From Stenotrophomonas maltophilia (lineage in GTDB: Bacteria; Pseudomonadota; Gammaproteobacteria; Xanthomonadales; Xanthomonadaceae), in the NCBI RefSeq assembly GCF_900186865.1, contig NZ_LT906480.1:3118001-3182000 (forward strand): 64,000 nt of DNA. The letters run 5' to 3'. The position numbers and the translations under genes are program-made. Positions 3,735 to 53,726 of the stretch are shown here, piece after piece. Under the pieces are notes generated by a model. That model had not been told where the DNA came from. It saw only the letters and a program-made list of their open reading frames with translations, and ran no database searches. Position 1 is the stretch's first letter. Each line of letters begins with the position of its first letter.

Positions 3735-4146
3735 TGTAGTACTGGACGGCGTGCTTGATCATTTCAAACGCCATGCCAGCGCCGTCGCCACCACCGACCT
3801 TTTCGCAGCTGCCAGCCTCCTTGCCGAGCAGCATGCGCGCGATCTGGCCTGCCGCGCCGATCAGCACACCGCCGATGAGGATCGGGGCCACGTCACCGAT
3901 GCGCTTGTGGGCAAACGCAATCTGGTAACCGGCGAAGATCACGGCGATCGTGACCACGGCGATCGAGGCCATGTTCAGCAGACCGTTGATGTTGGAGAAG
4001 AAGCCGCAGACCTTGCCATCGGTACCACCGAAGTCAGTGCCGGCCAGGGCCTGGGGAGCGAACACAGCACCGGCGAATGCGACGGCCATCAGCATGGTCT
4101 TCAGCGTGCGCTGGGCCTGGACGAGGTCGAGATTGAATCGCTTCAT
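3727..4146 (-). CDS. virB2: VirB2 major pilin
   Basis: T4SS pilin subunit. The 139-aa precursor has a long basic/hydrophobic leader ending in PQALA-G at about residue 35. The mature 104-aa protein has two hydrophobic helices around a short polar loop with basic residues (HKRIGD), the VirB2/TrbC arrangement. Two cysteines in the mature part could form a disulphide. I chose the ATG at 4146, which has AAGGAAA upstream; a longer in-frame extension to 4326 overlaps virB1 and looks non-coding. Confidence 0.92.
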   Translation of the reverse strand: MKRFNLDLVQAQRTLKTMLMAVAFAGAVFAPQALAGTDFGGTDGKVCGFFSNINGLLNMASIAVVTIAVIFAGYQIAFAHKRIGDVAPILIGGVLIGAAGQIARMLLGKEAGSCEKVGGGDGAGMAFEMIKHAVQYYSA

Positions 4147-32459: not shown

Positions 32460-32517
32460 TGGCGGAGAGAGTGGGATTCGAACCCACGGAAGGTTTAACC
32501 CTTCGCCGGTTTTCAAG
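32460..32517 (-). pseudogene. 3' half of a disrupted host tRNA-Ser(UGA)
   Basis: On the minus strand this reads from the anticodon loop (CTTGAAAAC) through the variable arm (GAAGG...CCTTC), T-arm (GTGGG-TTCGAAT-CCCAC), acceptor strand TCTCTCC, discriminator G and encoded CCA. The 5' half is absent here and is found at 41002-41042. Joined at the shared 9-bp core they give a 90-nt tRNA with a perfect 7-bp acceptor stem (GGAGAGA/TCTCTCC). The fragment cannot function as a tRNA. Confidence 0.9.
32509..32517. repeat. Left attachment core (attL-like) of the integrative element
   Basis: The 9-bp sequence GTTTTCAAG (complement CTTGAAAAC) is the tRNA-Ser anticodon loop plus two stem bases. The same 9 bp occurs at 41002-41010, at the other junction, and once inside the element's own tRNA gene (40954-40962). 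Confidence 0.85.
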
Positions 32518-32781
32518 TTTCCCGCACCCAGACTCTGCGCAACTGTGCGCCTCTTTAGTAAGCCATACGCACCTTTACAGGTCAATGAGTTGCGTTCGCT
32601 TTTTGTTTTGTGGAACTTGTCGTAACTTTACCTGTGGCGCTTACGAACTGCTTATGAGCGCCTGAAAAGATGCGGCCGGCGACTGCGCCAACAGTCCCGA
32701 CCGCGTGGTCAACTCCCTTAAGTACGAAGGAAGCCAACGTGACGATAGTAACCACAACCGCACCAGTCAGCGAGGCGCTAT
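32518..32781. other. Left end of the element, no gene
   Basis: This stretch lies between the left attachment core and the integrase. I see no coding frame. It holds one copy of the 13-bp repeat CGAACTGCTTATG (32644-32656) and related words (GTAAGCC, GCTTACG), the expected location of integrase and excisionase binding sites. Confidence 0.6.
32644..32656 (+). repeat. Putative integrase arm-type site, left copy
   Basis: CGAACTGCTTATG, identical and in the same orientation to 40776-40788 near the other end. The copies sit about 130 and 220 bp inside the two attachment cores, as arm-type sites of tyrosine integrases usually do. Confidence 0.5.
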
Positions 32782-34014
32782 ATGCCTAAGCTGACGAAGA
32801 ACTACATCGACAAGATCACCGCGCCCGCTGACAAAGAGGCGTTCCACTGGGACGACTCGCTCAAGGGGTTCGGCCTTCGGGTCACTCCTACCGGCAAGAT
32901 CACCTACATCGTGCAGGGGCGCGTCAATGGCAGTTCGCCCCGCATCAGTATCGGCCCGCATGGGGTCTTCACCGTCGATCAAGCCCGTGATGTTGCGCGC
33001 GAGCACCTGCGCAGCATGCGCATGGGCATCGACCCGCGCGCCGTCGCCAAGAAGGAAGCAGCCCAGCGCGTGACCCTCCGCGACGTGGCCGACGCCTACA
33101 AGCGCGACCGCCCCTTGAAGGACAGCAGCAAGGCCGAGATTGAACGCCATGTGACCACAACCTTTGAGGCATGGCTCAAGAAGCCGCTCAGGGACATCAA
33201 CCGCGAGATGGTCACGAAGCGGTTCAACGACATCAAAAACAACGGCACGCGCGGCGATGGGCCAGCCCCAGCGCAGGCGAACCAGTCAATGGCGGTGCTT
33301 CGCGCCTTGTTCAACTACGCCATCCGTGAATACCGCGAGCCGGACGGGTCGCCAGTTCTGACGGATAACCCCGTCGATGTGCTCTATAAGAAGTGGGTGC
33401 CGCTCAAGCCCCGCACCAGCCGCGTGCCGGATAGCAAGGTCGGCGCGGTGTGGTCATTCCTTACCCATGCCCGCGACCAAGCCTACAACCGCGACACGCT
33501 GGCAAGCATCGACCTCGTGATGCTGCTCATACTCACCGGCCTGCGGATTGGCGAGTGCAGCGAACTGACATGGGACAGGGTCAACCTTGAGGAAGGCTGG
33601 ATTCACATACCCGACCCGAAGAACAGCAACCCCGTATGGCTGCCGCTATCCACGCAGGCGGTGCAGTTGCTGACCACGCGCCAGCGGGTCAAAGGTAGCC
33701 CGTTCGTGTTCTCGTCCTGGGGCAAGGCTGGACACATCAAAGACCCGCGCGACACCATGAAGAAGGTTAGCGAGGCGGCAGGTACGAAGATCACGCCGCA
33801 CGACCTGCGCCGCACCTTTACGACCATCGGCATCGCCAATTGCGGCATCGACTTGCACAAGGTCGAATTGCTGACGAACCATGTGCCCAAGGGTGTAACC
33901 GCACGCCACTACCTTGAGACTTCGCACCTGCAATATCTCAAGCCTGAAACGCAACGCATATCCGACTGGATTGAGCAGCAGGCAGCGGCCTTAAACGACT
34001 GTTCAGAAAGCTAA
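32782..34014 (+). CDS. int: Tyrosine recombinase integrase (P4-type, DUF4102 N-terminus)
   Basis: A 410-aa tRNA-targeting integrase. N-terminal DUF4102 arm-binding domain (DDSLKGFGLRVTPTGKITYI), SAM-like core-binding domain (about 100-190) and C-terminal catalytic domain with Arg255 (TGLRIGECSELTWD), His340-x-x-Arg343 (HDLRRTFTTIG) and nucleophile Tyr377 (ARHYLE). The catalytic set looks complete, so the element may still be able to recombine. It reads inward from the left attachment core. Confidence 0.94.
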   Translation: MPKLTKNYIDKITAPADKEAFHWDDSLKGFGLRVTPTGKITYIVQGRVNGSSPRISIGPHGVFTVDQARDVAREHLRSMRMGIDPRAVAKKEAAQRVTLRDVADAYKRDRPLKDSSKAEIERHVTTTFEAWLKKPLRDINREMVTKRFNDIKNNGTRGDGPAPAQANQSMAVLRALFNYAIREYREPDGSPVLTDNPVDVLYKKWVPLKPRTSRVPDSKVGAVWSFLTHARDQAYNRDTLASIDLVMLLILTGLRIGECSELTWDRVNLEEGWIHIPDPKNSNPVWLPLSTQAVQLLTTRQRVKGSPFVFSSWGKAGHIKDPRDTMKKVSEAAGTKITPHDLRRTFTTIGIANCGIDLHKVELLTNHVPKGVTARHYLETSHLQYLKPETQRISDWIEQQAAALNDCSES

Positions 34015-34051
34015 ACAGTTAAAAATATCAAACACTTAGCGTAAAGCTGCG

Positions 34052-34140
34052 TTATAGTTGCGCCAACTTAGCCAGCCCCGTGCAACGCGGGGCGGCTCGG
34101 TGCCGGAGACGGGGCACCTAAATATCTGTCTCCGTTAGCC
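34052..34140 (+). ncRNA. Structured RNA candidate upstream of the AlpA-like gene
   Basis: In a 270-bp gap without ORFs. A hairpin GCCCCG/CGGGGC (34075-34093) is followed by stem GGTGCC/GGCACC (34099-34118). The loop of the second stem contains GGAGAC, which is complementary to GTCTCC at 34128-34133, so an H-type pseudoknot or a two-state switch can form. A -10-like TTATAG lies at about 34052. It could be a small regulatory RNA or a leader of the downstream genes. I do not recognise an Rfam family. Confidence 0.4.
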
Positions 34141-34213
34141 GGTGGAGCAAGAGTAACCAGCCTCCCAGGACCCGGACACCCCATCCCGTCGGGCAGGTGA
34201 CAACATAAATGAC

Positions 34214-34284
34214 GGCAAGCATTCGCCTTGCCTGACGCTCCCTATTGCATGCGCTGGCAAGGCTCAGTCTGAGGACTACTTGCC
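34214..34284 (+). promoter_or_regulatory. Paired GGCAAG/CTTGCC inverted repeats over the AlpA-like gene's ribosome site
   Basis: Two inverted repeats with the same half-site: GGCAAG-N7-CTTGCC (34214-34232) and GGCAAG-N17-CTTGCC (34256-34284). The second ends exactly at the ATG and encloses the GAGG ribosome site (34271-34274). These could be operators for the AlpA-like protein or an RNA hairpin masking the ribosome site. Confidence 0.5.
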
Positions 34285-34530
34285 ATGACCACAATTTCCG
34301 CGCTCGACCCGAACCTGCGCACTAACAAAGAAGCTGCCAAGCGGCTCAAGATCAAGCCCAACACCCTCGAAATCTGGCGGGGCAAGGGCAAAGGCCCGAA
34401 GTTCATCAAGCTGGGCGATTCAAAGCAGGCTCCCATCCGCTATCGGGATTCCGATATTGACGAGTGGTTGGAGCAGCAATCCTTCCGCAGTACCAGCGCC
34501 TACGCGCCGAACGCCAAACAAGCTGTTTGA
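34285..34530 (+). CDS. AlpA/excisionase-like HTH protein
   Basis: An 81-aa protein with a MerR-type winged HTH: LRTNKEAAKRLKIKPNTLEI is the helix-turn-helix, followed by WRGKGKGPKFIKLG and RYRDSDIDEWLEQQ. This is the HTH_17/AlpA pattern of regulators and excision factors in P4-like and satellite elements. It likely controls integrase or excision. Located between the integrase and the replication ATPase. Confidence 0.88.
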   Translation: MTTISALDPNLRTNKEAAKRLKIKPNTLEIWRGKGKGPKFIKLGDSKQAPIRYRDSDIDEWLEQQSFRSTSAYAPNAKQAV

Positions 34531-34660
34531 CGTTCATGGCGACGAAAACCCAATGCAGCCGCGCAACGTGCCCACCCCGCACCCTCGTTGGCAAGCCCAC
34601 CGTAACTTCATCAAGAAAAAAGCTCGCGGGTCAGGCGAGCTTTGAAGAGGAACAACTGCA

Positions 34661-36007
34661 ATGGACGAACACACTGTAGGACATGCCGGTTCAGGCGGCT
34701 CTGATATTTTGCAGGCGGCACAGCCGCCGCTACAGCACGGCCAGCATGCGGGCCAATGGGGTAACGGCGGCCAACATGCAAACGTGGCCCCAGCCGCCGC
34801 ACAGCCGCCCAGCAGCCCCGAAAGCCAAGGGTTCTTTTGGAAAGATAACGTAGGCTTTGCCAGTAGCTTCCTTGACGAGGTGGAGCGCAGGGCGCAGCGG
34901 GCACAAACGGAGCTATTCAAGCTCGGTGCCGCAATATCAACCGAAGAGTGGTGGCATGCACGGGTTGCACAGCCTGCCATTGTGGAAGACTGGTTCCACG
35001 AGGACGTTGGCGTATTCGTCGCACCGGGCGGCACGGGCAAGACGACGCTGCTGCTGTTTCAGGTCATCCATATCGTGCTTGGGCGCGATCTGTTCGGTCA
35101 CCGAGTGCTGAATCCCGGCCCGGTCATCATTCTCACAGCAGAGGACAGCCGTGAAACGCTGGTTGCCCGCCTGCGGCACATGTGCCAGCAACTTCGTCTG
35201 TCGCAGGACGAGGAACGGCAAGTCCGTGAAGAAGTGAATATCACAGACGTATCAGGCAAAGGGTTCAAACTCACCACAGTGGAAAAGGATGTGGTGGCAC
35301 CGAGCAAGCTCCTTGACCGATTCGTCGTCAATGCCTCCGAACTGCACCCGTCGCTAATCATCATTGACCCAATGGTGTCGTTCGGCGTCGGTGAAAGCCG
35401 TATCAACGATTCTGAGCAGGGTCTGATTGATGCCGCGCGGCGGATCAAGAACGAACTGCGGTGCGCGGTGCTCTACGTTCATCACACCGGCAAGGCGAAC
35501 GCGCGGGATGCGTCGCTAGACCAGTACAGCGGGCGCGGCGGCAGCGCGCTGGCAGACGGGGCGCGCATGGTGCATGTGCTTCAGCGGCTTGACCACGAAG
35601 CATGGACGGAAGCAACCGGCGACGAACTGACGGACGACGATTCGGGGTTCGTGCTTGCGCGGCCAAAGATGACATGGTGCGCACCACAGCCCCACGTCTA
35701 TCTCAAGAGGCGCGGCTATTTGTTTGAGCGGTTTGACGCTGTTGCAGCGACCGAAGGTGCTGGCGCTGTGATTGACAGAGATGCGGAAAAGATTTTCCAG
35801 TTCGTGCGCGAGGAATACCTACACGGCAAGAAGTACAGCCAGAACGACCTTATTCATATGAAGCTGGTTGGCTCACAGAGCAGGCTGCGCGCCGCCGTGT
35901 CGCGGCTGAAGGCTGACAACCGGCTGATGGACGAGAAACTAACCACAACCGGCCAAGGCGGCGCACGGCAGTTCCTACGACCGATGGAGCTACCGCAGCA
36001 GGCCTAA
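34661..36007 (+). CDS. RepA-like/AAA_25 ATPase, replication helicase
   Basis: A 448-aa protein. The N-terminal ~70 residues are Gly/Gln/His/Ala-rich and probably disordered. The ATPase core shows Walker A PGGTGKTTLL (near 122-131), VIILTAEDSRETLVARL, Walker B LIIIDPMVSF (Asp near 236) and the sensor-like AVLYVHHTGK, the signature of RepA/hexameric DnaB-like helicases (AAA_25). The C-terminus (about 370-440) is a winged-helix-like region. It probably drives autonomous replication of the excised element; GTGTTG repeats directly downstream could be its origin. Confidence 0.85.
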   Translation: MDEHTVGHAGSGGSDILQAAQPPLQHGQHAGQWGNGGQHANVAPAAAQPPSSPESQGFFWKDNVGFASSFLDEVERRAQRAQTELFKLGAAISTEEWWHARVAQPAIVEDWFHEDVGVFVAPGGTGKTTLLLFQVIHIVLGRDLFGHRVLNPGPVIILTAEDSRETLVARLRHMCQQLRLSQDEERQVREEVNITDVSGKGFKLTTVEKDVVAPSKLLDRFVVNASELHPSLIIIDPMVSFGVGESRINDSEQGLIDAARRIKNELRCAVLYVHHTGKANARDASLDQYSGRGGSALADGARMVHVLQRLDHEAWTEATGDELTDDDSGFVLARPKMTWCAPQPHVYLKRRGYLFERFDAVAATEGAGAVIDRDAEKIFQFVREEYLHGKKYSQNDLIHMKLVGSQSRLRAAVSRLKADNRLMDEKLTTTGQGGARQFLRPMELPQQA

Positions 36008-36009
36008 AC

Positions 36010-36205
36010 GGCCTTGGTGTGTTGCTGTGTTTTTGGTGTGTTGGTGGTGTGTTACCACAGCAAGGAAGGGAACACATGCAAACACGGTTTTTGCCGTGTT
36101 GCTGTGTAATTCCCTTAGGGCAACACAGCAAACCAAAGCGGCGGCGTCCCACATGCCAAAGCGGCCTTGTGCTGGTCGGTCGCCGTTTTGGTGTGTTGCC
36201 CGTGG
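36010..36205 (+). other. Iteron-like repeats and hairpin: candidate replication origin of the element
   Basis: Immediately after the RepA-like gene, TTGGTGTGTTG or close variants occur at about 36014, 36033, 36043, 36093 and 36188, with inverted forms between 36070 and 36130. A hairpin pairs TTGCTGTGT (36099-36107) with ACACAGCAA (36123-36131), with CCC-TTA-GGG in its loop. No ORF is present. Such direct and inverted repeats beside a replication helicase gene suggest an origin; a regulatory region is the alternative. Confidence 0.45.
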
Positions 36206-36688
36206 TCACCCAATTGCAGCGGTGGCGCGTGACAGCCCGTTAAATCGCCTCCAGACGTAAAACTCGCAGGCCACGTTGTTCTCGTTCCAACCGTGGTCAG
36301 TGGCGGCAGCTTTCGCGTCCTTGATCGTTGCGCCCGGGTGCGCGTCCAGCCACGCCCAGACCGCAGCGCACAGGCCACCCGCACGCGGGCGCTTGACGCC
36401 GTTGCGTTCTTCACGCTCCACCTTCGGGGCGGCTGCTTTCTTCGCCTTGCTTGTGGTCACCCCCTGCACGGCGACAGCGGGCGCTACAGGCTCGCTTTCG
36501 GTAGCGGTCGCCGCTGGGGTACTGGCCGCACCCTGCGCAGCGCTTGCGGGCGGCTGCTTCGCCTTCCAGCCAAAGCGCACCTCGTCGCCGTTCTTATGCA
36601 CGGTGATTTCCACCAGTTCAGCGGGCACCCCTGCGGCAACACCAGCGCGGCGGGCGTTGTTCCGGTTCGTGTAGGTCTTGGCTTCCAT
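36206..36688 (-). CDS. Hypothetical protein with C-terminal HTH-like region
   Basis: A 160-aa protein on the opposite strand to its neighbours. Start MEAKTYTNRNNARRAG, a middle Ala/Pro/Thr-rich linker, then a conserved-looking C-terminus (GGLCAAVWAWLDAHPGATIK, then DHGWNENNVACEFYVWRRFNG) that could fold as a small helical DNA-binding module. Similar layouts occur in phage and island proteins. Start at 36688 has an appropriate GGAGCAA upstream. Family name not known to me. Confidence 0.65.
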   Translation of the reverse strand: MEAKTYTNRNNARRAGVAAGVPAELVEITVHKNGDEVRFGWKAKQPPASAAQGAASTPAATATESEPVAPAVAVQGVTTSKAKKAAAPKVEREERNGVKRPRAGGLCAAVWAWLDAHPGATIKDAKAAATDHGWNENNVACEFYVWRRFNGLSRATAAIG

Positions 36689-36939
36689 CGTCGTTGCTCC
36701 TGTGCGGGTTGTAGATGGGGCAACGCTAAGACGCATCTCCGAGACTCGGCAACGACTTTTTGGATGCACCCGACAGCGCCTTTGATGCCGAACGAATAAC
36801 GCCCAATTACTTGTTCCCAGTTTGTTCTTGAACTGTAGAGCGTTGTTTTAAATAAATATTCCTTGCGGACCTTCGCTGATATTTCCCAGCATGTAAGCAA
36901 TGCGTACCAGTTACGCGCCTTTTATCAAGGAGTTTGCAC

Positions 36940-37656
36940 ATGCCTACCGAAATTGATGCCCGTATCACGCCCACGCTGCACCCCGACAACGTCGCAAGCA
37001 TTGACGGCTTTGACGAGCAGACCGCGCCGTATCTCGCGCCCACCATGACCGCGTTCAGCACCGCCTATGAAGGCATTCGTGCTGTCCATGAGGCGCGGGA
37101 GAAAGCCAAAACCAATCCGACTTGGAATGAAGCGCATCAGATCATTCACACGGACGACTTCGCGCAAAAGCACCTCGCTCGTATCACCAAAAGTTTCGAC
37201 GTAACCCGCTCGAACTTGGAGAAGGGTATTGCGATGCTGGAGCAGCAGCTTGCAACGCCACTTGAATCCAAGGCAGCGCAGAGCGTCAGCGCTGAGATTC
37301 GCGCCTACGCCAAGAACCTGCCCAGCGAACAGCGCCACAAGTTCATCCAGCAAGCCATTGACGAGGGTGACCACACTTCAGTCGCGGCGCTTCTGGGTGC
37401 CCCGCCATATCTGTCCGGCCTCGATGCGAACTTCCAGCAGACCTATGTTCGTTTCTGGAACGAGCGCAGCGCTCCCGAAGTTGCCCAGCGCCTCAAGGCG
37501 ATGAAGGGTGCCAAGCAGATGATCGAAGAGCGGGCCGGATTGGTGTTCAAAGAGCTTGAGAAGGCTGTTGGCGCGCCCCCGCACAAGGCCGCCGCTCTTC
37601 GGAAAGCCAAGACGGAAGCGGAGCAAGCCTTCGTCCTCAAGGACATTGGCCAGTGA
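36940..37656 (+). CDS. Hypothetical phage/island protein
   Basis: A 238-aa soluble, mostly helical protein with no motif I recognise. The ATG at 36940 is preceded by AAGGAG at 7 nt. It is the first of six same-strand genes with short gaps or overlaps, and is probably part of a late or packaging-like module with the DUF5681 gene that follows. Confidence 0.7.
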   Translation: MPTEIDARITPTLHPDNVASIDGFDEQTAPYLAPTMTAFSTAYEGIRAVHEAREKAKTNPTWNEAHQIIHTDDFAQKHLARITKSFDVTRSNLEKGIAMLEQQLATPLESKAAQSVSAEIRAYAKNLPSEQRHKFIQQAIDEGDHTSVAALLGAPPYLSGLDANFQQTYVRFWNERSAPEVAQRLKAMKGAKQMIEERAGLVFKELEKAVGAPPHKAAALRKAKTEAEQAFVLKDIGQ

Positions 37657-37701
37657 CCTTGTTGGCCCCTGCAATCAACAACATCAAGCGGAGGTAATCA
37701 A

Positions 37702-38175
37702 GTGTCCGAATCCCAAACGCCTGAATGGCTCAAGACATGGCAGGACTCCCCTGCTGCGCAGGAGCCGCCGCACCGTGGCGGGTTCTTGCCCGGAGTGAGC
37801 GGAAATCCTCGGGGCAGGCCGGTCGGGTCGCGGAACAAGAAGAACGTCATCGCTGACGAGCTTGCCAAGGAAGGTAGCGCGGTGGCCCGTGTGGTCATGG
37901 ACGCTGCGCTTGCCGGTGATATGCAGGCCGCCAACATGGTGCTGCAACGTCTGTCGCCTCCGCTCCGTGCCCGCGCTGAAAAGGTGACGTTTGAACTGAC
38001 CCCGGACGCGCCCCTGCACGAGCAGGCCAATCAGGTGCTCGCGTCGGTGGCGGAAGGCGCGATTGACCCGGAGACCGGAAAGCTGCTTATCGACTGTATC
38101 CAGTCGGTGGCGGGCATCCGTGCCGTTGATGAACTGGAAGCGCGCCTTATCGCGCTGGAGGAGAAACAAGCATGA
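37702..38175 (+). CDS. DUF5681 protein, small-terminase-like
   Basis: A 157-aa protein with the DUF5681 signature FLPGVSGNPRGRPVGSRNKK near the N-terminus, common in phage and satellite genomes near packaging genes. The start is GTG at 37702 with GGAGGT at 7 nt upstream. The stop overlaps the next ATG (ATGA). No large terminase or portal gene accompanies it in this element. Confidence 0.8.
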   Translation: MSESQTPEWLKTWQDSPAAQEPPHRGGFLPGVSGNPRGRPVGSRNKKNVIADELAKEGSAVARVVMDAALAGDMQAANMVLQRLSPPLRARAEKVTFELTPDAPLHEQANQVLASVAEGAIDPETGKLLIDCIQSVAGIRAVDELEARLIALEEKQA

Positions 38176-38384
38176 GCATCTATGACACCGACAGCATTCC
38201 GCTGAATGGCTGGGCGCGGCCAAAGATCGAGCGCCCGATCGACACGCCGCAGGGGCAAGCCGATCTCAAGCTGATTGTCGAGACCTGCTACGCCGCGATC
38301 CTCAACTGCGACGACCCTGCCGTGCGCTGGCAGGCCGCGCGCCTGTTGCAAGCAATCGGCCCATTGAAAGGAACCCTGCAATGA
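38172..38384 (+). CDS. Small hypothetical island protein
   Basis: A 70-aa protein (MSIYDTDSIPLNGWARPKIE) overlapping its upstream and downstream neighbours by 4 nt each, so it is translationally coupled within the module. Function not recognised. Confidence 0.65.
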   Translation: MSIYDTDSIPLNGWARPKIERPIDTPQGQADLKLIVETCYAAILNCDDPAVRWQAARLLQAIGPLKGTLQ

Positions 38385-38563
38385 AGAACCTGCACACCGA
38401 CCCGCGCGAGAACGCGCCCGTCAAGCACACGGTAACGCCCGACGACCTGCAACAGATTCAGCAGCGCCGCATCGAGGCGCATGCAGCCCGCGAGACTAGC
38501 GACGCGCTGAACCTGCTCCGCGCTTTCAAGCTGGGCGAGGCGCTGCGCGAGGCACGGGAGTAA
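38381..38563 (+). CDS. Small hypothetical island protein
   Basis: A 60-aa highly charged protein (VTPDDLQQIQQRRIEAHAAR) predicted to be helical. Coupled to the preceding ORF by an ATGA overlap. Function not recognised. Confidence 0.6.
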   Translation: MKNLHTDPRENAPVKHTVTPDDLQQIQQRRIEAHAARETSDALNLLRAFKLGEALREARE

Positions 38564-38567
38564 CCAC

Positions 38568-38795
38568 ATGAGCATCAGCAGCGCCAAGGGCATGCTCGCC
38601 CGCCTCAAGCACTTGGAGCGCTCGCAAGGTGCGACCGACGAGATGCGAGGCTGGGTCAGTGACATGCTCGGCGCTGCCATTGCTGACGGTCGCATGTGCC
38701 CGGTCGATGGCCCTGTGGTGCTGCACTGCGTGATGAACTGGATCGACGACGGCACCGCACGCGCCGGGACTGCTGGCTGGGGGTTGCTGCGATGA
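38568..38795 (+). CDS. Small hypothetical island protein
   Basis: A 75-aa protein (MSISSAKGMLARLKHLERSQ) starting 4 nt after the previous stop and overlapping the next start by 4 nt. No motif recognised. Confidence 0.6.
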   Translation: MSISSAKGMLARLKHLERSQGATDEMRGWVSDMLGAAIADGRMCPVDGPVVLHCVMNWIDDGTARAGTAGWGLLR

Positions 38796-39034
38796 AGCCG
38801 AATTTCCAAGGCTTCGTAGAGCCGCGCATGTGGCCGCAGGACGACGGAGCGCGACGCGAACCCGTGCTTGATGCTGACCACAAGCCGCCGCGCGTGGTGC
38901 GCTATGTCGGCTGGCGGAAGTGCATGCGCTGTGGTCAGCTCTTTTGGTCGGAGGACGTGCAGCGCTTGCGCCTATGCACCCCGCAACCGAACCGGCAAGG
39001 ATGCAGGAGCAGACAAGACGACGACGGCATCTGA
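38792..39034 (+). CDS. Small zinc-finger-like island protein
   Basis: An 80-aa protein with a CMRC knuckle and further cysteines (LCTP, GC) that could bind zinc (WRKCMRCGQLFWSEDVQRLR). Start overlaps the preceding stop (ATGA). It is the last gene of the module; a perfect hairpin follows about 150 nt later. Confidence 0.65.
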   Translation: MKPNFQGFVEPRMWPQDDGARREPVLDADHKPPRVVRYVGWRKCMRCGQLFWSEDVQRLRLCTPQPNRQGCRSRQDDDGI

Positions 39035-39422
39035 AAAACCCTGCACCGCCCTTATCGTCGTCAGCGGTGCAGCGGTGCCCGGTACTAGAGAAGCCGGGCC
39101 GTGCCACAGCATGCCGATGCACGTTAATCAATCGGATGCAGCAGCGAGGCGGGTTGTGCTCCTACCTGTCCGACGCTGCCTTCAACGGGTGCCGCTGGCA
39201 CCCGTTGTCGTTTGTGCGGCTGCGCGAGCGTAGCGGGCGGCTGGGGCGACGATCACCACACCGCCGCCGCTAGGGTACTAGCGAGCACGGCAAGTGGCCT
39301 GCAGCGGCGCGCATGCCAGCGGATAAGGAACGACAAACACGGAGTTATTCGGGCTTGCCCGCTAACCGATTGATGGGCTTGTGGTTAGCTCGGTTCAACC
39401 GGGAGCGCATAAGCCCAGCGTA
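39035..39422. other. 388-bp gap without a gene between phage-like module and mer genes
   Basis: No frame here has convincing coding character. It contains a perfect 11-bp hairpin CAACGGGTGCC-GCT-GGCACCCGTTG (39183-39207) followed by TCGTTT, a plausible terminator of the small-ORF module, and a GTGGTTAG/CTAACCAC inverted repeat (39381-39430) overlapping the end of the mer operon. I found no transposon ends. Confidence 0.5.
39183..39207 (+). terminator. Hairpin ending the small-ORF module
   Basis: Perfect 11-bp stem with a 3-nt loop, followed by a short T-rich stretch (TCGTTT). Strong stem but weak T-tract. Confidence 0.45.
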
Positions 39423-39635
39423 CTAACCACAGCACTGTTTCTGAGTCTGGATCGGCGGGCAAGGCACTGATCCGAACGAGCAGAATACGCAGCAGTCACC
39501 CGGCTTTGGGCGCAGCAGAATTTTGCAATTCTCGCACTCGTAGTAGAACTGGCACGCATCGGTTGGCATGGTTTCCTTCTTTGCGAAGCCACAATGCGGA
39601 CACGTAAGCACAGACTCAAGGACAACGGCATCCAT
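39423..39635 (-). CDS. GDCCVxC-domain small cysteine protein of the mer operon
   Basis: A 70-aa protein with eleven cysteines, including two CxxC pairs (CPHC, CENC) and the hallmark GDCCVFCSFG (Cys48, 49, 52). Such GDCCVxC (seleno)proteins recur next to merT/merP; their biochemical role is not established, though metal or mercury binding is likely. Third gene of the merT-merP operon, 7 nt after merP. Here Cys, not selenocysteine, occupies the motif. Confidence 0.85.
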   Translation of the reverse strand: MDAVVLESVLTCPHCGFAKKETMPTDACQFYYECENCKILLRPKPGDCCVFCSFGSVPCPPIQTQKQCCG

Positions 39636-39642
39636 AGTAGTA

Positions 39643-39918
39643 TCACTTCCGCACTGTGGAGGGATAACCGGCGTTTGTCGTCGCTGTAGTCAGCACCTGC
39701 GGCTGCGCCTTGTCAGGGTCATACGTCACCGTGGCGGTCTTCGAGTCGTAATCAACTTTCACCGCGCTCACGCCAACGACCTTTTCGAGCGACTTCTTGA
39801 CCGTGATTGGGCATGTGCCACAGGTCATGTTCTGGACATCAAGAGTGACCGTCTTCGGCGTACCGGCGAACACCGCCAACGGAAGCGCTGCAAGCGTGGT
39901 AATTAACAATCGGCGCAT
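39643..39918 (-). CDS. merP: MerP periplasmic mercury-binding protein
   Basis: A 91-aa precursor: signal peptide to about residue 19 (LAALPLAVFAG), then an HMA domain with the Hg(II)-binding GMTCxxC-type motif (MTCGTCPITVKKSLEKV, Cys33 and Cys36). It captures Hg(II) in the periplasm and passes it to MerT. 15 nt downstream of merT. Confidence 0.95.
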   Translation of the reverse strand: MRRLLITTLAALPLAVFAGTPKTVTLDVQNMTCGTCPITVKKSLEKVVGVSAVKVDYDSKTATVTYDPDKAQPQVLTTATTNAGYPSTVRK

Positions 39919-39933
39919 GGGAACAACCTCCTA

Positions 39934-40281
39934 TCAGTAGAACAGTGGGGCCAGCCACGGCACCGACAACAAGGCGAAGAGCAGCACAGTAACGATCCAG
40001 AACACTAGTCGCTGGCGCTTGCGCGTTCGTGCATCAACGCAAGGCGTGTCTGGCGCGCAGGCCTGAGGCACTAGATAGAGCTTGCGGAACGCAAGCCCGA
40101 GGAACACCAGTGTCAGTCCGATGAGGATCGGTCGATATGGCTCAAGTGCGGTCAGGCTGCTGACCCATGCACCGCCGATGCCGAGGGTCAACAGCACGAG
40201 AGGGCCGACGCAGCACACCGAGGCACCGATTGCGGCCAAGGCACCCGCAATCAATGAGCCGTTGCCGGTGAGTTGTGCCAT
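39934..40281 (-). CDS. merT: MerT mercuric ion transporter
   Basis: A 115-aa inner-membrane protein with three transmembrane helices. Cys23-Cys24 (GASVCCVGPLV) in helix 1 and the cytoplasmic pair Cys75/Cys81 (ACAPDTPC) match the Hg relay of Tn501/Tn21 MerT. First gene of the operon driven by the MerR-controlled promoter. Confidence 0.95.
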   Translation of the reverse strand: MAQLTGNGSLIAGALAAIGASVCCVGPLVLLTLGIGGAWVSSLTALEPYRPILIGLTLVFLGLAFRKLYLVPQACAPDTPCVDARTRKRQRLVFWIVTVLLFALLSVPWLAPLFY

Positions 40282-40314
40282 AAGAGTCTCCTTGAACCTA
40301 TCTGCCTGGTGCTA

Positions 40315-40345
40315 CTCTAAATGCTGTACCTAGGTACGGGATCAA
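40315..40345 (-). promoter_or_regulatory. MerR-controlled merT promoter and operator
   Basis: On the minus strand: -35 TTGATC (40340-40345), a 19-bp spacer CCGTACCTAGGTACAGCAT and -10 TTAGAG (40315-40320). The spacer holds the dyad GTACCTAGGTAC (40326-40337), the mer operator core. The same region must serve the divergent merR promoter. Confidence 0.88.
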
Positions 40346-40355
40346 GGGGAATTTG

Positions 40356-40754
40356 ATGGCGGCAGAGCTAACTATCGGCAAGCTGGCAAATGCGGCTGGC
40401 GTGAACATCGAGACGATCCGGTACTACCAGAGGCGAGGCTTGCTGGATGAGCCACCCAAGCCTCTGGGCGGTCATCGCCGCTATGCGCCGCAGCAAGTCA
40501 AGCGTCTACGATTTATCCGCCGCGCGCAGGTTCTAGGATTCACACTGGACGAGATCGCCGGTCTCTTGAGGCTCGAGGAAGCGTGCGCATGCGCAGAGAC
40601 GCTCGACCTTGCTGCTCACAAGCTCCAAATCATTGATGCCAAGCTCGCGGACTTGACTGCGATGCGCAAGGCGCTTGCTGACCTGATGCGCGAGTGCGAA
40701 TCGTCTGGCATGAAAGGGGCATGCCCGATCATTCACACACTGGCAGCAGACTGA
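40356..40754 (+). CDS. merR: MerR mercury-responsive regulator
   Basis: A 132-aa metalloregulator: winged HTH (LTIGKLANAAGVNIETIRYY), dimerisation helix and Cys79, Cys114 and Cys123. Their 35/9 spacing equals that of the Hg-binding Cys82, Cys117 and Cys126 of Tn501 MerR. Start at 40356 with AGGGGA about 6 nt upstream. Divergent from merT over a 74-bp operator region. Confidence 0.95.
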   Translation: MAAELTIGKLANAAGVNIETIRYYQRRGLLDEPPKPLGGHRRYAPQQVKRLRFIRRAQVLGFTLDEIAGLLRLEEACACAETLDLAAHKLQIIDAKLADLTAMRKALADLMRECESSGMKGACPIIHTLAAD

Positions 40755-40775
40755 GCTTCGTAGGTAGTTGTCACG

Positions 40776-40788
40776 CGAACTGCTTATG
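40776..40788 (+). repeat. Putative integrase arm-type site, right copy
   Basis: CGAACTGCTTATG, identical to 32644-32656, located between merR and the element's tRNA gene. Confidence 0.5.
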
Positions 40789-40823
40789 GTGTGCTTACGC
40801 CACACCTTTTGCCCAACTACAAG

Positions 40824-40848
40824 AAAGCCCCGACTGGCGGGGCTTTTT
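40824..40848. terminator. Bidirectional terminator between merR and the element's tRNA-Ser
   Basis: AAAGCCCCG-ACTGG-CGGGGCTTT followed by further Ts on the plus strand, and by TTTCTT on the minus strand. It can end merR on the plus strand and the tRNA-Ser transcript on the minus strand. Confidence 0.85.
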
Positions 40849-40906
40849 GTCGCTTTTGACAAACCCTTTGCGCGCTCACAGAACTGCGCTAAGTGTTTGT
40901 TTTTAT

Positions 40907-40994
40907 TGGCGGAAGCTCAGGGATTCGAACCCTGGAACCCTTGCGGGTTGCCGGTTTTCAAGACCGGTGCAATCGACCACTCTGCCAAGCTTCC
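40907..40994 (-). tRNA. tRNA-Ser(UGA), complete copy carried by the element
   Basis: An 88-nt tRNA with encoded CCA: acceptor GGAAGCT/AGCTTCC, D-arm, anticodon stem CCGGT/ACCGG with loop CTTGAAA (anticodon TGA at 40958-40960), long class II variable arm AACCC-GCAA-GGGTT and T-arm CAGGG-TTCGAAT-CCCTG. All stems pair. It shares only the anticodon arm region with the interrupted host tRNA and differs in acceptor, variable and T stems, so it is a foreign isoacceptor rather than a duplication. It lies 7 nt from the broken host 5' half and in the same orientation. Confidence 0.97.
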
Positions 40995-41001
40995 TACAAC
41001 T

Positions 41002-41010
41002 GTTTTCAAG
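41002..41010. repeat. Right attachment core (attR-like) of the element
   Basis: GTTTTCAAG, identical to the left core at 32509-32517. To its right is host tRNA sequence, to its left element sequence. Confidence 0.85.
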
Positions 41011-41042
41011 ACCGGTGCCTTAAACCGCTCGGCCATCTCTCC
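41002..41042 (-). pseudogene. 5' half of the disrupted host tRNA-Ser(UGA)
   Basis: On the minus strand: GGAGAGATGGCCGAGCGG, D-arm, CCGGT and anticodon loop CTTGAAA, then two stem bases before it diverges into the element. The complementary 3' anticodon stem, variable arm, T-arm and acceptor strand are missing here and lie at 32460-32517. It still has its promoter, so it is transcribed as the leader of the element's tRNA. Confidence 0.92.
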
Positions 41043-53659: not shown

Positions 53660-53726
53660 CAACCCGCCAATCACTTCGGCTGCCGTTTGTTCCCTCCCCT
53701 CACGGCTTCAGGATTGGCGGGTTTTT
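53660..53726 (+). ncRNA. Candidate small RNA or long-loop terminator
   Basis: A perfect 12-bp stem AACCCGCCAATC (53661-53672) / GATTGGCGGGTT (53712-53723) closes a 39-nt loop and is followed by a T5 tract. A promoter-like sequence with 17-bp spacing ends 7 nt before the stem. The arrangement predicts a ~65-nt RNA whose ends pair, leaving a pyrimidine-rich single-stranded loop (TTCCCTCCCCTCAC). The alternative is a simple terminator for the phasin transcript. Confidence 0.4.

What the first reader, a model, noticed from the sequence alone, without database searches (positions are those of the whole stretch)
32460..41042. Integrative element splits tRNA-Ser(UGA) in the anticodon loop and brings its own replacement tRNA
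Seen directly: the 3' half of a tRNA-Ser at 32460-32517 and the 5' half at 41002-41042 share the 9-bp core GTTTTCAAG and join to a perfect 90-nt tRNA-Ser(UGA). Between them is an 8.5-kb element whose right end carries a complete, well-paired tRNA-Ser(UGA) that differs in acceptor, variable and T stems. Established knowledge: tRNA-targeting tyrosine integrases normally carry the displaced 3' part of the tRNA so that the gene is restored. Here only 9 bp are shared and the host gene stays broken, so function would have to come from the foreign isoacceptor. Inference: the element addicts its host by owning a tRNA that is essential unless another UCA reader exists; excision would restore the original tRNA and remove the substitute.
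Basis: partly seen in the sequence, partly recalled or inferred. Interest (0 to 1): 0.88.

Follow-up and report, generated by a model that had tools for sequence, protein, structure and literature searches.

The report
Mobile element replaces host serine tRNA
A small mobile DNA element breaks its bacterial host's only detected copy of one serine tRNA gene and supplies a foreign replacement, a survival trick known from some phages and found here in a family of elements that do not look like phages.

Summary
The two tRNA-Ser(UGA) halves join into a perfect gene that is whole in same-genus genomes; two relatives show the empty site. The 8.5-kb insert carries a different, complete tRNA-Ser(UGA), the only one detected in the genome. 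It belongs to a family: of 18 related elements (Beta-, Gamma-, Alphaproteobacteria), 17 show the tRNA end and 16 of these have a broken host 5' half followed by a whole element tRNA. In 15 of 16 host genomes searched no other tRNA-Ser(UGA) was detected. Integrase relatives in tRNA-Lys/Pro/Asn rebuild the host gene as usual, and the replacing clade nests among them. The principle is published for actinobacteriophages ('tRNA-dependent lysogeny', PMC10865867), and tRNA substitution by prophage-like sequences for Sinorhizobium. What I found in no paper searched is this non-phage family, its nesting among restorers, and the tRNA's place 7-20 nt behind the host's broken 5' half (12 of 16), where the host promoter could drive it (inferred). 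'Addiction' is only partly right: precise excision would rebuild the host gene. A same-genus genome without any detected tRNA-Ser(UGA) is an unexplained caution about essentiality. New variant of a known kind.

The parts
32460..32517 (-). 3' half of the host tRNA-Ser(UGA), anticodon loop to encoded CCA (att junction on the integrase side)
   Evidence: the gene is whole in same-genus genomes
32509..32517 (-). 9-bp core at the integrase end; 7 of its bases (32511-32517) are the whole anticodon loop CTTGAAA
   Evidence: in five relatives the shared stretch ends with the loop
32644..32656 (+). CGAACTGCTTATG, left copy of a 13-bp direct repeat, possible arm-type integrase site
   Evidence: six overlapping shared 8-mers; role inferred
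32782..34014 (+). tyrosine integrase, Arm-DNA-bind_3 + Phage_integrase, 410 aa
   Evidence: 93-100% identical in L045-L048, L054 and G427
34285..34530 (+). AlpA-like HTH protein (possible excisionase/regulator; the name AlpA is recalled)
   Evidence: HTH_17, phrog_66 excisionase and regulator
34661..36007 (+). AAA_25 RepA/primase-helicase-like protein
36206..36706 (-). ORF of unknown function with relatives in the family (frame used in the scans; start codon not assigned)
36940..37656 (+). 238-aa ORF, also in tRNA-Lys/Pro/Asn relatives at 36-47%
37702..38175 (+). DUF5681 protein, also in tRNA-Lys/Pro relatives
38172..39034 (+). four small ORFs (38172-38384, 38381-38563, 38568-38795, 38792-39034) with relatives in several family members
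39643..39918 (-). merP
   Evidence: TIGR02052 above cut-off; no match in the 34 loci compared, many of them cut by contig ends
39934..40281 (-). merT
   Evidence: PF02411
40356..40754 (+). merR
   Evidence: TIGR02051 above cut-off
40776..40788 (+). CGAACTGCTTATG, right copy of the 13-bp repeat, possible arm-type site
   Evidence: role inferred
40822..40848 (.). terminator-like hairpin, found on both strands, downstream of the element tRNA
   Evidence: 2 found, 0.8 expected from shuffles
40907..40994 (-). complete replacement tRNA-Ser(UGA), 88 nt with encoded CCA, same direction as the broken host gene
   Evidence: (58.1 bits); identical to joined host tRNAs of L053 and L055
40995..41001 (-). 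7-nt spacer AGTTGTA between host 5' half and element tRNA
   Evidence: same 7 nt in L049, L054, L056 and G454
41002..41042 (-). 5' half of the host tRNA-Ser(UGA), still behind the host's upstream region

Best explanation
This is an integrative element of about 8.5 kb whose tyrosine integrase recombines at the anticodon loop of tRNA-Ser(UGA). It does not rebuild the target; it brings a whole tRNA-Ser(UGA) gene beside its attP core. Integration therefore breaks the host's only detected UCA-reading tRNA gene and in the same step places the element's tRNA, in the same orientation, 7 nt behind the host's own 5' half and upstream region (shown by sequence: split, single foreign copy, position, orientation). 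The element tRNA is then most likely transcribed from the host promoter, processed and used for UCA codons (inferred). Because little more than the anticodon loop has to match, the element can settle in hosts whose tRNA-Ser stems would not pair with its own 3' half (the mispairing is shown; the host-range effect is inferred). In principle this is the tRNA-dependent integration known from actinobacteriophages, here in an element without phage genes, within a family whose other members restore their targets.
For: Split and empty site. Only UGA copy detected. Family: 18 serine-clade loci, 17 with the tRNA end in view, 16 of 17 with a host 5' half directly before a whole element tRNA; 14 of 14 joined host tRNAs and 16 of 16 element tRNAs fully paired. 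No second intact tRNA-Ser(UGA) found in 15 of 16 host genomes. Host 5' + element 3' halves fully paired in only 1 of 14; in the window 4 of 7 acceptor pairs. Integrases 99-100% identical to the window's occur in a Stutzerimonas, a betaproteobacterium and G427. Restoring relatives: the tRNA's last 44 nt recur beside the integrase with 0-2 mismatches in 8 of 10. Tree: the replacing mode is one clade among restoring types, one change, support 92/97. Promoter scan: 0 of 12 short-spacer elements show a site at P<0.1 within host 5' half plus spacer; host upstream DNA is at P<=0.14 in 10 of 12. Precedent with experiments: PMC10865867.
Against: No expression or excision data. The stricter consensus scan found no promoter on either side in the window region, and my matrix is recalled and home-made. 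A single-contig same-genus genome, G490, has no tRNA-Ser(UGA) that Rfam plus ARAGORN, a pattern or BLAST could find, so either it is faulty or incomplete, or the gene is less indispensable than assumed. L071's element has the tRNA but its core is not preceded by a tRNA half. MAG G456 has two further tRNA-Ser(UGA) genes on small contigs. The clade support is not starred and the root rests on one long row.
Confidence: 0.85

Rival explanations
1. Addiction module: the tRNA mainly serves to stop the host losing the element.
For: No other tRNA-Ser(UGA) detected in 15 of 16 hosts. In L063 the integrase gene looks broken (stop after 95 codons of the match, only residues 11-255 matched) yet tRNA and halves persist. 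In L047/G454 the host 3' half is truncated beside an inverted segment, so clean excision could not rebuild it.
Against: In 14 of 14 elements with both halves, precise excision would rebuild a perfect host gene, so clean loss is not punished; no toxin-like family among the ten proteins scanned in each of three libraries.
Confidence: 0.1
2. The host tRNA is still made from its two halves (split gene, joined in trans) and the element tRNA is a passenger.
For: Halves are intact in 14 of 14.
Against: Trans-spliced split tRNAs are known to me only from archaea (recalled). The 3' half lies 8.5 kb downstream of the 5' half, beyond a terminator-like hairpin and the whole element. Intactness is expected simply from recent insertion.
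Confidence: 0.01
3. The element tRNA has its own promoter, as in phage Fionnbharth, and the location next to attP is incidental.
For: In the four long-spacer elements promoter-like sites lie in host 5' half plus spacer (P 0.02, 0.09, 0.12, 0.32). In the circular form, 4 of 10 short-spacer elements with both ends (L048, L054, G427, G453) have a site at P<=0.08 upstream of the tRNA, which integration would separate from it; the window's is at P=0.18. The Fionnbharth tRNA has a demonstrated promoter (PMC10865867).
Against: In the integrated state 12 of 16 elements leave only 7-20 nt, and none of the 12 shows a site at P<0.1 across host 5' half plus spacer.
Confidence: 0.25
4. Assembly or sequence artefact.
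For: A same-genus genome, G490, looks odd at this gene.
Against: Same arrangement in a second single-contig genome (G427) and in 14 further genomes or MAGs of other organisms.
Confidence: 0.01

Closest known systems
tRNA-dependent lysogeny of actinobacteriophages (Fionnbharth, Gaia, Mollymur and others; Guerrero-Bustamante and Hatfull 2024, PMC10865867; abstract, sections 6, 10, 11 and passages seen)
   Same: Tyrosine integrase with arm domain; core of 8-17 bp at a host tRNA gene; host tRNA not rebuilt; element brings the same isotype; related integrases that do rebuild the target.
   Different: No phage genes found here; Proteobacteria; tRNA-Ser(UGA), a target not in their Table 2; tRNA sits at the attP core and lands behind the host's 5' half, whereas Fionnbharth's overlaps another gene and has its own promoter (I did not check where the other phages' tRNAs lie); no experiment yet.
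Prophage-like sequences replacing tRNA genes in Sinorhizobium meliloti (PMC11476347; abstract start and passages seen)
   Same: Inactivated host tRNA replaced by an element tRNA that resembles those of unrelated bacteria; an alphaproteobacterial host, and sequences as small as 3.24 kb among those studied.
   Different: Described as phage-related, in one species; att anatomy, tRNA position and integrase relationship to the present family not compared.
Canonical tRNA islands (Islander, PMC4383910; abstract and passages seen)
   Same: Anticodon-loop crossover, tyrosine integrase, displaced 3' tRNA fragment beside the integrase.
   Different: The island does not regenerate the target; a 5' fragment also remains, and the complete tRNA is of another sequence.
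Lactobacillus johnsonii prophage Lj965 (known to me only as cited in PMC10865867)
   Same: tRNA not rebuilt, cognate tRNA on the prophage.
   Different: Phage, Firmicutes.
Tycheposons (only passages in PMC10872708 seen; defining paper not read)
   Same: tRNA-associated tyrosine-recombinase elements.
   Different: Defining features not examined here.

Membership tests
tRNA-dependent lysogeny | Tyrosine integrase | tested here: met
   PF00589 and PF13356
tRNA-dependent lysogeny | attB overlaps a host tRNA gene, short common core, no functional tRNA rebuilt | tested here: met
   9-bp core; neither junction gives a tRNA, ARAGORN finds only the element's own
[quoted passage not shown]
tRNA-dependent lysogeny | Disrupted host tRNA has no other copy | tested here: met
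tRNA-dependent lysogeny | Disrupted tRNA is essential | tested here: inconclusive
   Only gene able to read UCA by the usual rules (recalled); but G490 seems to lack it
tRNA-dependent lysogeny | Element is a temperate phage | tested here: not met
   No structural, lysis or packaging family among the proteins scanned; integrase under 60% identity to every match in phage records
tRNA-dependent lysogeny | Element tRNA required for establishment | not testable with these tools
   needs deletion experiments
Canonical tDNA-restoring island | Island fragment rebuilds the target tRNA | tested here: not met
   the Lys/Pro/Asn relatives have the canonical signature
Integrative and conjugative/mobilizable element | Relaxase or conjugation genes | tested here: not met
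   none among the ten proteins scanned with Pfam and NCBIfam; three small ORFs were scanned with PHROGs only and 39423-39635 not at all

The most novel reading that the evidence does not exclude
The element carries its tRNA gene as a promoter trap: integrase places it behind the promoter of the very tRNA gene it destroys, so that correct integration and survival are coupled and the host tRNA's stems need not match. The mode arose once from tRNA-restoring ancestors and has let a non-phage element family move foreign tRNA-Ser genes between bacterial orders, in some hosts apparently for good.
Probability: 0.38. Interest if true: 0.78.

Novelty: new variant of a known kind. Interest (0 to 1): 0.62.

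Why it matters
The 2024 phage paper left open how common tRNA-dependent integration is outside actinobacteriophages and how it relates to the usual target-restoring mode. This family bears on both: it has no recognisable phage genes, lives in Proteobacteria, and its replacing clade nests among restoring relatives that share part of its gene backbone. It also documents natural replacement of a single-copy tRNA gene by one from another order, and offers a testable architecture (expression from the destroyed gene's own promoter). Tools that look for one intact tRNA plus one fragment could misread such islands.

Tried and rejected
Addiction as the main function: weakened, since excision would rebuild the gene. 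Chance similarity of halves: rejected (14 of 14 true against 12 of 182 swapped pairs). A second tRNA-Ser(UGA) in the genome: none found. Element tRNA as host 5' half plus element 3' half (canonical): rejected, it agrees with the host's at only 60 of 90 positions and its 5' half differs too. Repeated 5' halves in G049, G055 and G050 as the same phenomenon: 1.0-1.3 kb of each was read and set aside as local duplications; no integrase search was made there. Protection of the element tRNA from its own integrase by altered anticodon stems: 8 of 16 element tRNAs (L050-L053, L055, L057, L063, G466) carry compensated stem changes (CTGGT-ACCAG or CTAGT-ACTAG), the other 8 keep CCGGT-ACCGG, so left as an idea. 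A tRNA silent in the circle: not borne out in general. Phage or plasmid homes for the integrase: every match under 60% identity. Frequency: 4 of 398 phylum genomes at E<=1e-60 (the own genome, G427 and two distant restoring types) and 1 of 349 in the order around G455, which is the known case itself. Rows dropped: L063 from the tree (translated integrase under 250 aa); L046, L047/G454, L056 and L071 from the 14-element pairing count (one end missing or damaged); L072 (24% identity) altogether.
Full report
OBSERVATION. The window holds the 3' half (32460-32517, -) and the 5' half (41002-41042, -) of one tRNA-Ser(UGA) gene, with the 9-bp core GTTTTCAAG at both ends. The joined 90-mer has 7/7 acceptor and 5/5 anticodon pairs. 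It occurs with 100% identity in 11 of the 36 other same-genus genomes; 31 of 36 match over the full length at 97-100%, the other five over most of it at 94-97%. A 390-nt joined probe was searched in 91 genus genomes: 87 match at E<=1e-30, the own genome (in two pieces) included. In G036 and G016 a single alignment (83%, 81%) covers 62 nt upstream, the tRNA and all 150 nt downstream, i.e. the empty site; G025 keeps nearly all of the upstream flank and the tRNA. Four genomes had no match (G490, G506, G508, G509; see AGAINST).

ELEMENT tRNA. ARAGORN and Rfam find a whole tRNA-Ser(UGA) at 40907-40994 (-). It agrees with the host gene at 60 of 90 positions and equals the joined host tRNA of a Rhodocyclaceae MAG (L053) and of a Brachymonas MAG (L055); the Zoogloea element L048 carries the same one. 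In the own genome (5,004,261 bases, one contig) Rfam finds 65 tRNAs; I read the 13 long ones outside the window and one odd one, and the serine genes are CGA, GCT and GGA, so the element's is the only UGA. UCA is used: 47 of 13,707 codons in ORFs of 200 aa or more outside the element (ORFs picked greedily, not annotated genes).

FAMILY. The integrase query gave 26 genome loci and 2 viral-contig loci, and G427 by genome search. Eighteen loci form the serine clade: window, G453 (L045+L080), L046, G454 (L047+L081), L048-L057, L063, G466 (L058+L082), L071, G427 (L077). The tRNA end is in view in 17 (not L046). In 16 of 17 a host 5' half lies directly before a whole element tRNA-Ser(UGA) in the same orientation; the exception is L071, whose core has no tRNA half before it. 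In 14 of 14 with both halves, the halves join to a fully paired tRNA-Ser(UGA), and 16 of 16 element tRNAs are fully paired. The invariant core is the 7-nt anticodon loop CTTGAAA. Of the 15 elements with both cores in view, ten share nine bases; in L051, L055, L057, L063 and G466 the shared stretch ends with the loop. A pattern search for tRNA-Ser(UGA) 5' arms in 16 genomes (L046's and L071's were not searched) found exactly two perfect matches, broken half and element copy, in 15; MAG G456 has two further copies on 6- and 15-kb contigs. Most of these are drafts or MAGs; G000 and G427 are single contigs. Core-to-core sizes of the window and seven relatives are 8.2-9.4 kb.

WHY A WHOLE tRNA. A canonical island would supply only a 3' half. 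Pairing the host 5' half with the element's own 3' half gives a fully paired molecule in 1 of 14 cases; in the window only 4 of 7 acceptor pairs form. A complete gene thus removes the need for matching stems. In keeping with this, integrases 99-100% identical to the window's sit in a Stutzerimonas, a betaproteobacterium and G427, and near-identical integrases travel with different tRNAs (window against G453/G427), so the tRNA part is exchangeable.

ORIGIN. Integrase relatives at about 40-48% identity, most from sphingomonads, sit in tRNA-Lys(CUU), tRNA-Pro(GGG) or tRNA-Asn(GUU) with the usual anatomy: a whole tRNA at the far end and a 3' block beside the integrase. In ten such loci with the whole tRNA in view, its last 44 nt recur beside the integrase with 0-2 mismatches in eight; L065 has a damaged block (12) and L067's contig ends first. 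None shows a 5' half like the tRNA's own upstream (best 11-18 of 30 mismatched; L070 has only 35 nt in view). As a control, the same measure gives 0-8 in ten serine loci but 12 in L051, so a divergent half could be missed; reading 300 nt upstream in seven of the ten showed none. Eleven of the 13 restoring-type loci share the 238-aa ORF with the window and ten share DUF5681 (the two without either, L061 and L068, are cut by contig ends). In a 30-row tree the replacing state is one clade among restoring ones, with the tRNA-Pro pair as sister, one change of mode, support 92/97. That is good but not starred, and the outgroup row is long. The deepest replacing member, Sphingomonas L057, carries a tRNA 88/90 identical to its host's.

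EXPRESSION. In 12 of 16 elements 7-20 nt separate the shared core from the element tRNA, in four (L050, L052, L053, L057) about 116-145 nt. Using a recalled sigma-70 matrix and 300 mononucleotide shuffles, no short-spacer element has a site at P<0.1 within host 5' half plus spacer (lowest 0.17), whereas host upstream DNA scores P<=0.14 in 10 of 12 and P<=0.05 in 6 of 12; L048 (0.86) and L049 (0.41) do not. The stricter tool scan of the window region found no promoter on either side. In the circular form, 4 of 10 short-spacer elements with both ends (L048 0.08, L054 0.01, G427 <1/300, G453 0.03) have a promoter-like site before the tRNA; the window's best is at P=0.18. Host-promoter expression after integration is therefore likely but inferred, and silence before integration is not established.

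ELEMENT KIND. Arm-domain integrase, AlpA-like HTH protein, AAA_25 RepA-like protein, DUF5681, small family ORFs, and merR-merT-merP cargo matched in none of 34 compared loci. No phage structural gene and no relaxase appeared among the proteins scanned. Integrase matches in phage and plasmid records are all under 60% identity. How it transfers is unknown. A 13-bp direct repeat inside both ends (32644, 40776) may be an arm-type integrase site.

PERMANENCE. L063's integrase gene looks broken and G454/L047's host 3' half is truncated beside an inverted segment, yet the element tRNA remains the only one detected: these hosts may be locked in. Both are draft sequences.

LITERATURE. PMC10865867 (abstract, sections 6, 10, 11 and passages) established tRNA-dependent lysogeny, with phage tRNA deletion abolishing normal lysogeny, and says that its prevalence elsewhere and its relation to canonical systems are unclear. 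PMC11476347 (passages) reports tRNA substitution by prophage-like sequences in S. meliloti, an alphaproteobacterium; PMC12429752 (passages) found restoration, not substitution, for another prophage group there. PMC4383910 (passages) gives the canonical rule. My seven searches listed no report that I could recognise as this element family or as a non-phage version in Beta- or Gammaproteobacteria; only listings were seen for most papers, and the library holds open-access papers only.

AGAINST. No experiment; L071; G456; and G490, a single-contig same-genus genome (completeness 100) in which Rfam finds 64 tRNAs, the long ones read by ARAGORN include only Ser CGA, GGA and GCT, and pattern and BLAST searches find no tRNA-Ser(UGA); its promoter region runs straight into the last 18 nt of the gene. 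G509 (99% complete, draft) and the two incomplete genomes G506 and G508 also gave none. If G490 is real, essentiality needs rethinking; an assembly fault or an unseen replicon is as likely.

Noticed in passing
L120 (G490:C1:1834000-1842000) near 3973 and L121 near 4175: A single-contig same-genus genome seems to lack tRNA-Ser(UGA): the promoter region runs straight into the last 18 nt of the gene, and a second 3'-end copy lies 46 kb away, as at the ends of a canonical 3'-end island.
   Followed up: partly
L095 (G055:C49), L094 (G049:C17), L096 (G050:C32): Short repeats of tRNA-Ser(UGA) 5' parts in front of the intact gene in three same-order genomes; in G055 two of them end at the core CTTGAAAAC (a run of N follows one).
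   Followed up: partly
L047 9689-9970: The att end of the Lampropedia element is inverted relative to the integrase and the host tRNA 3' half is truncated.
   Followed up: partly
L063 1589-6916: Propionivibrio element of about 5.3 kb with a broken-looking integrase gene but intact replacement tRNA and host halves.
   Followed up: partly
L071 8314-8480: Same element type whose core is not next to a tRNA half: secondary site or rearrangement.
   Followed up: no
window 39423-40754: Partial mer set (merR, merT, merP and a small ORF; no merA seen among the ORFs) as cargo not matched in the relatives compared.
   Followed up: partly
L064 18178-18292: A further tRNA-Lys 3' block upstream of the complete tRNA-Lys suggests tandem or past insertions in Sphingobium chlorophenolicum.
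   Followed up: no
window 53677-53725: Rfam sX5 sRNA, described from Xanthomonadaceae; the only clue used here to the host's family.
   Followed up: no
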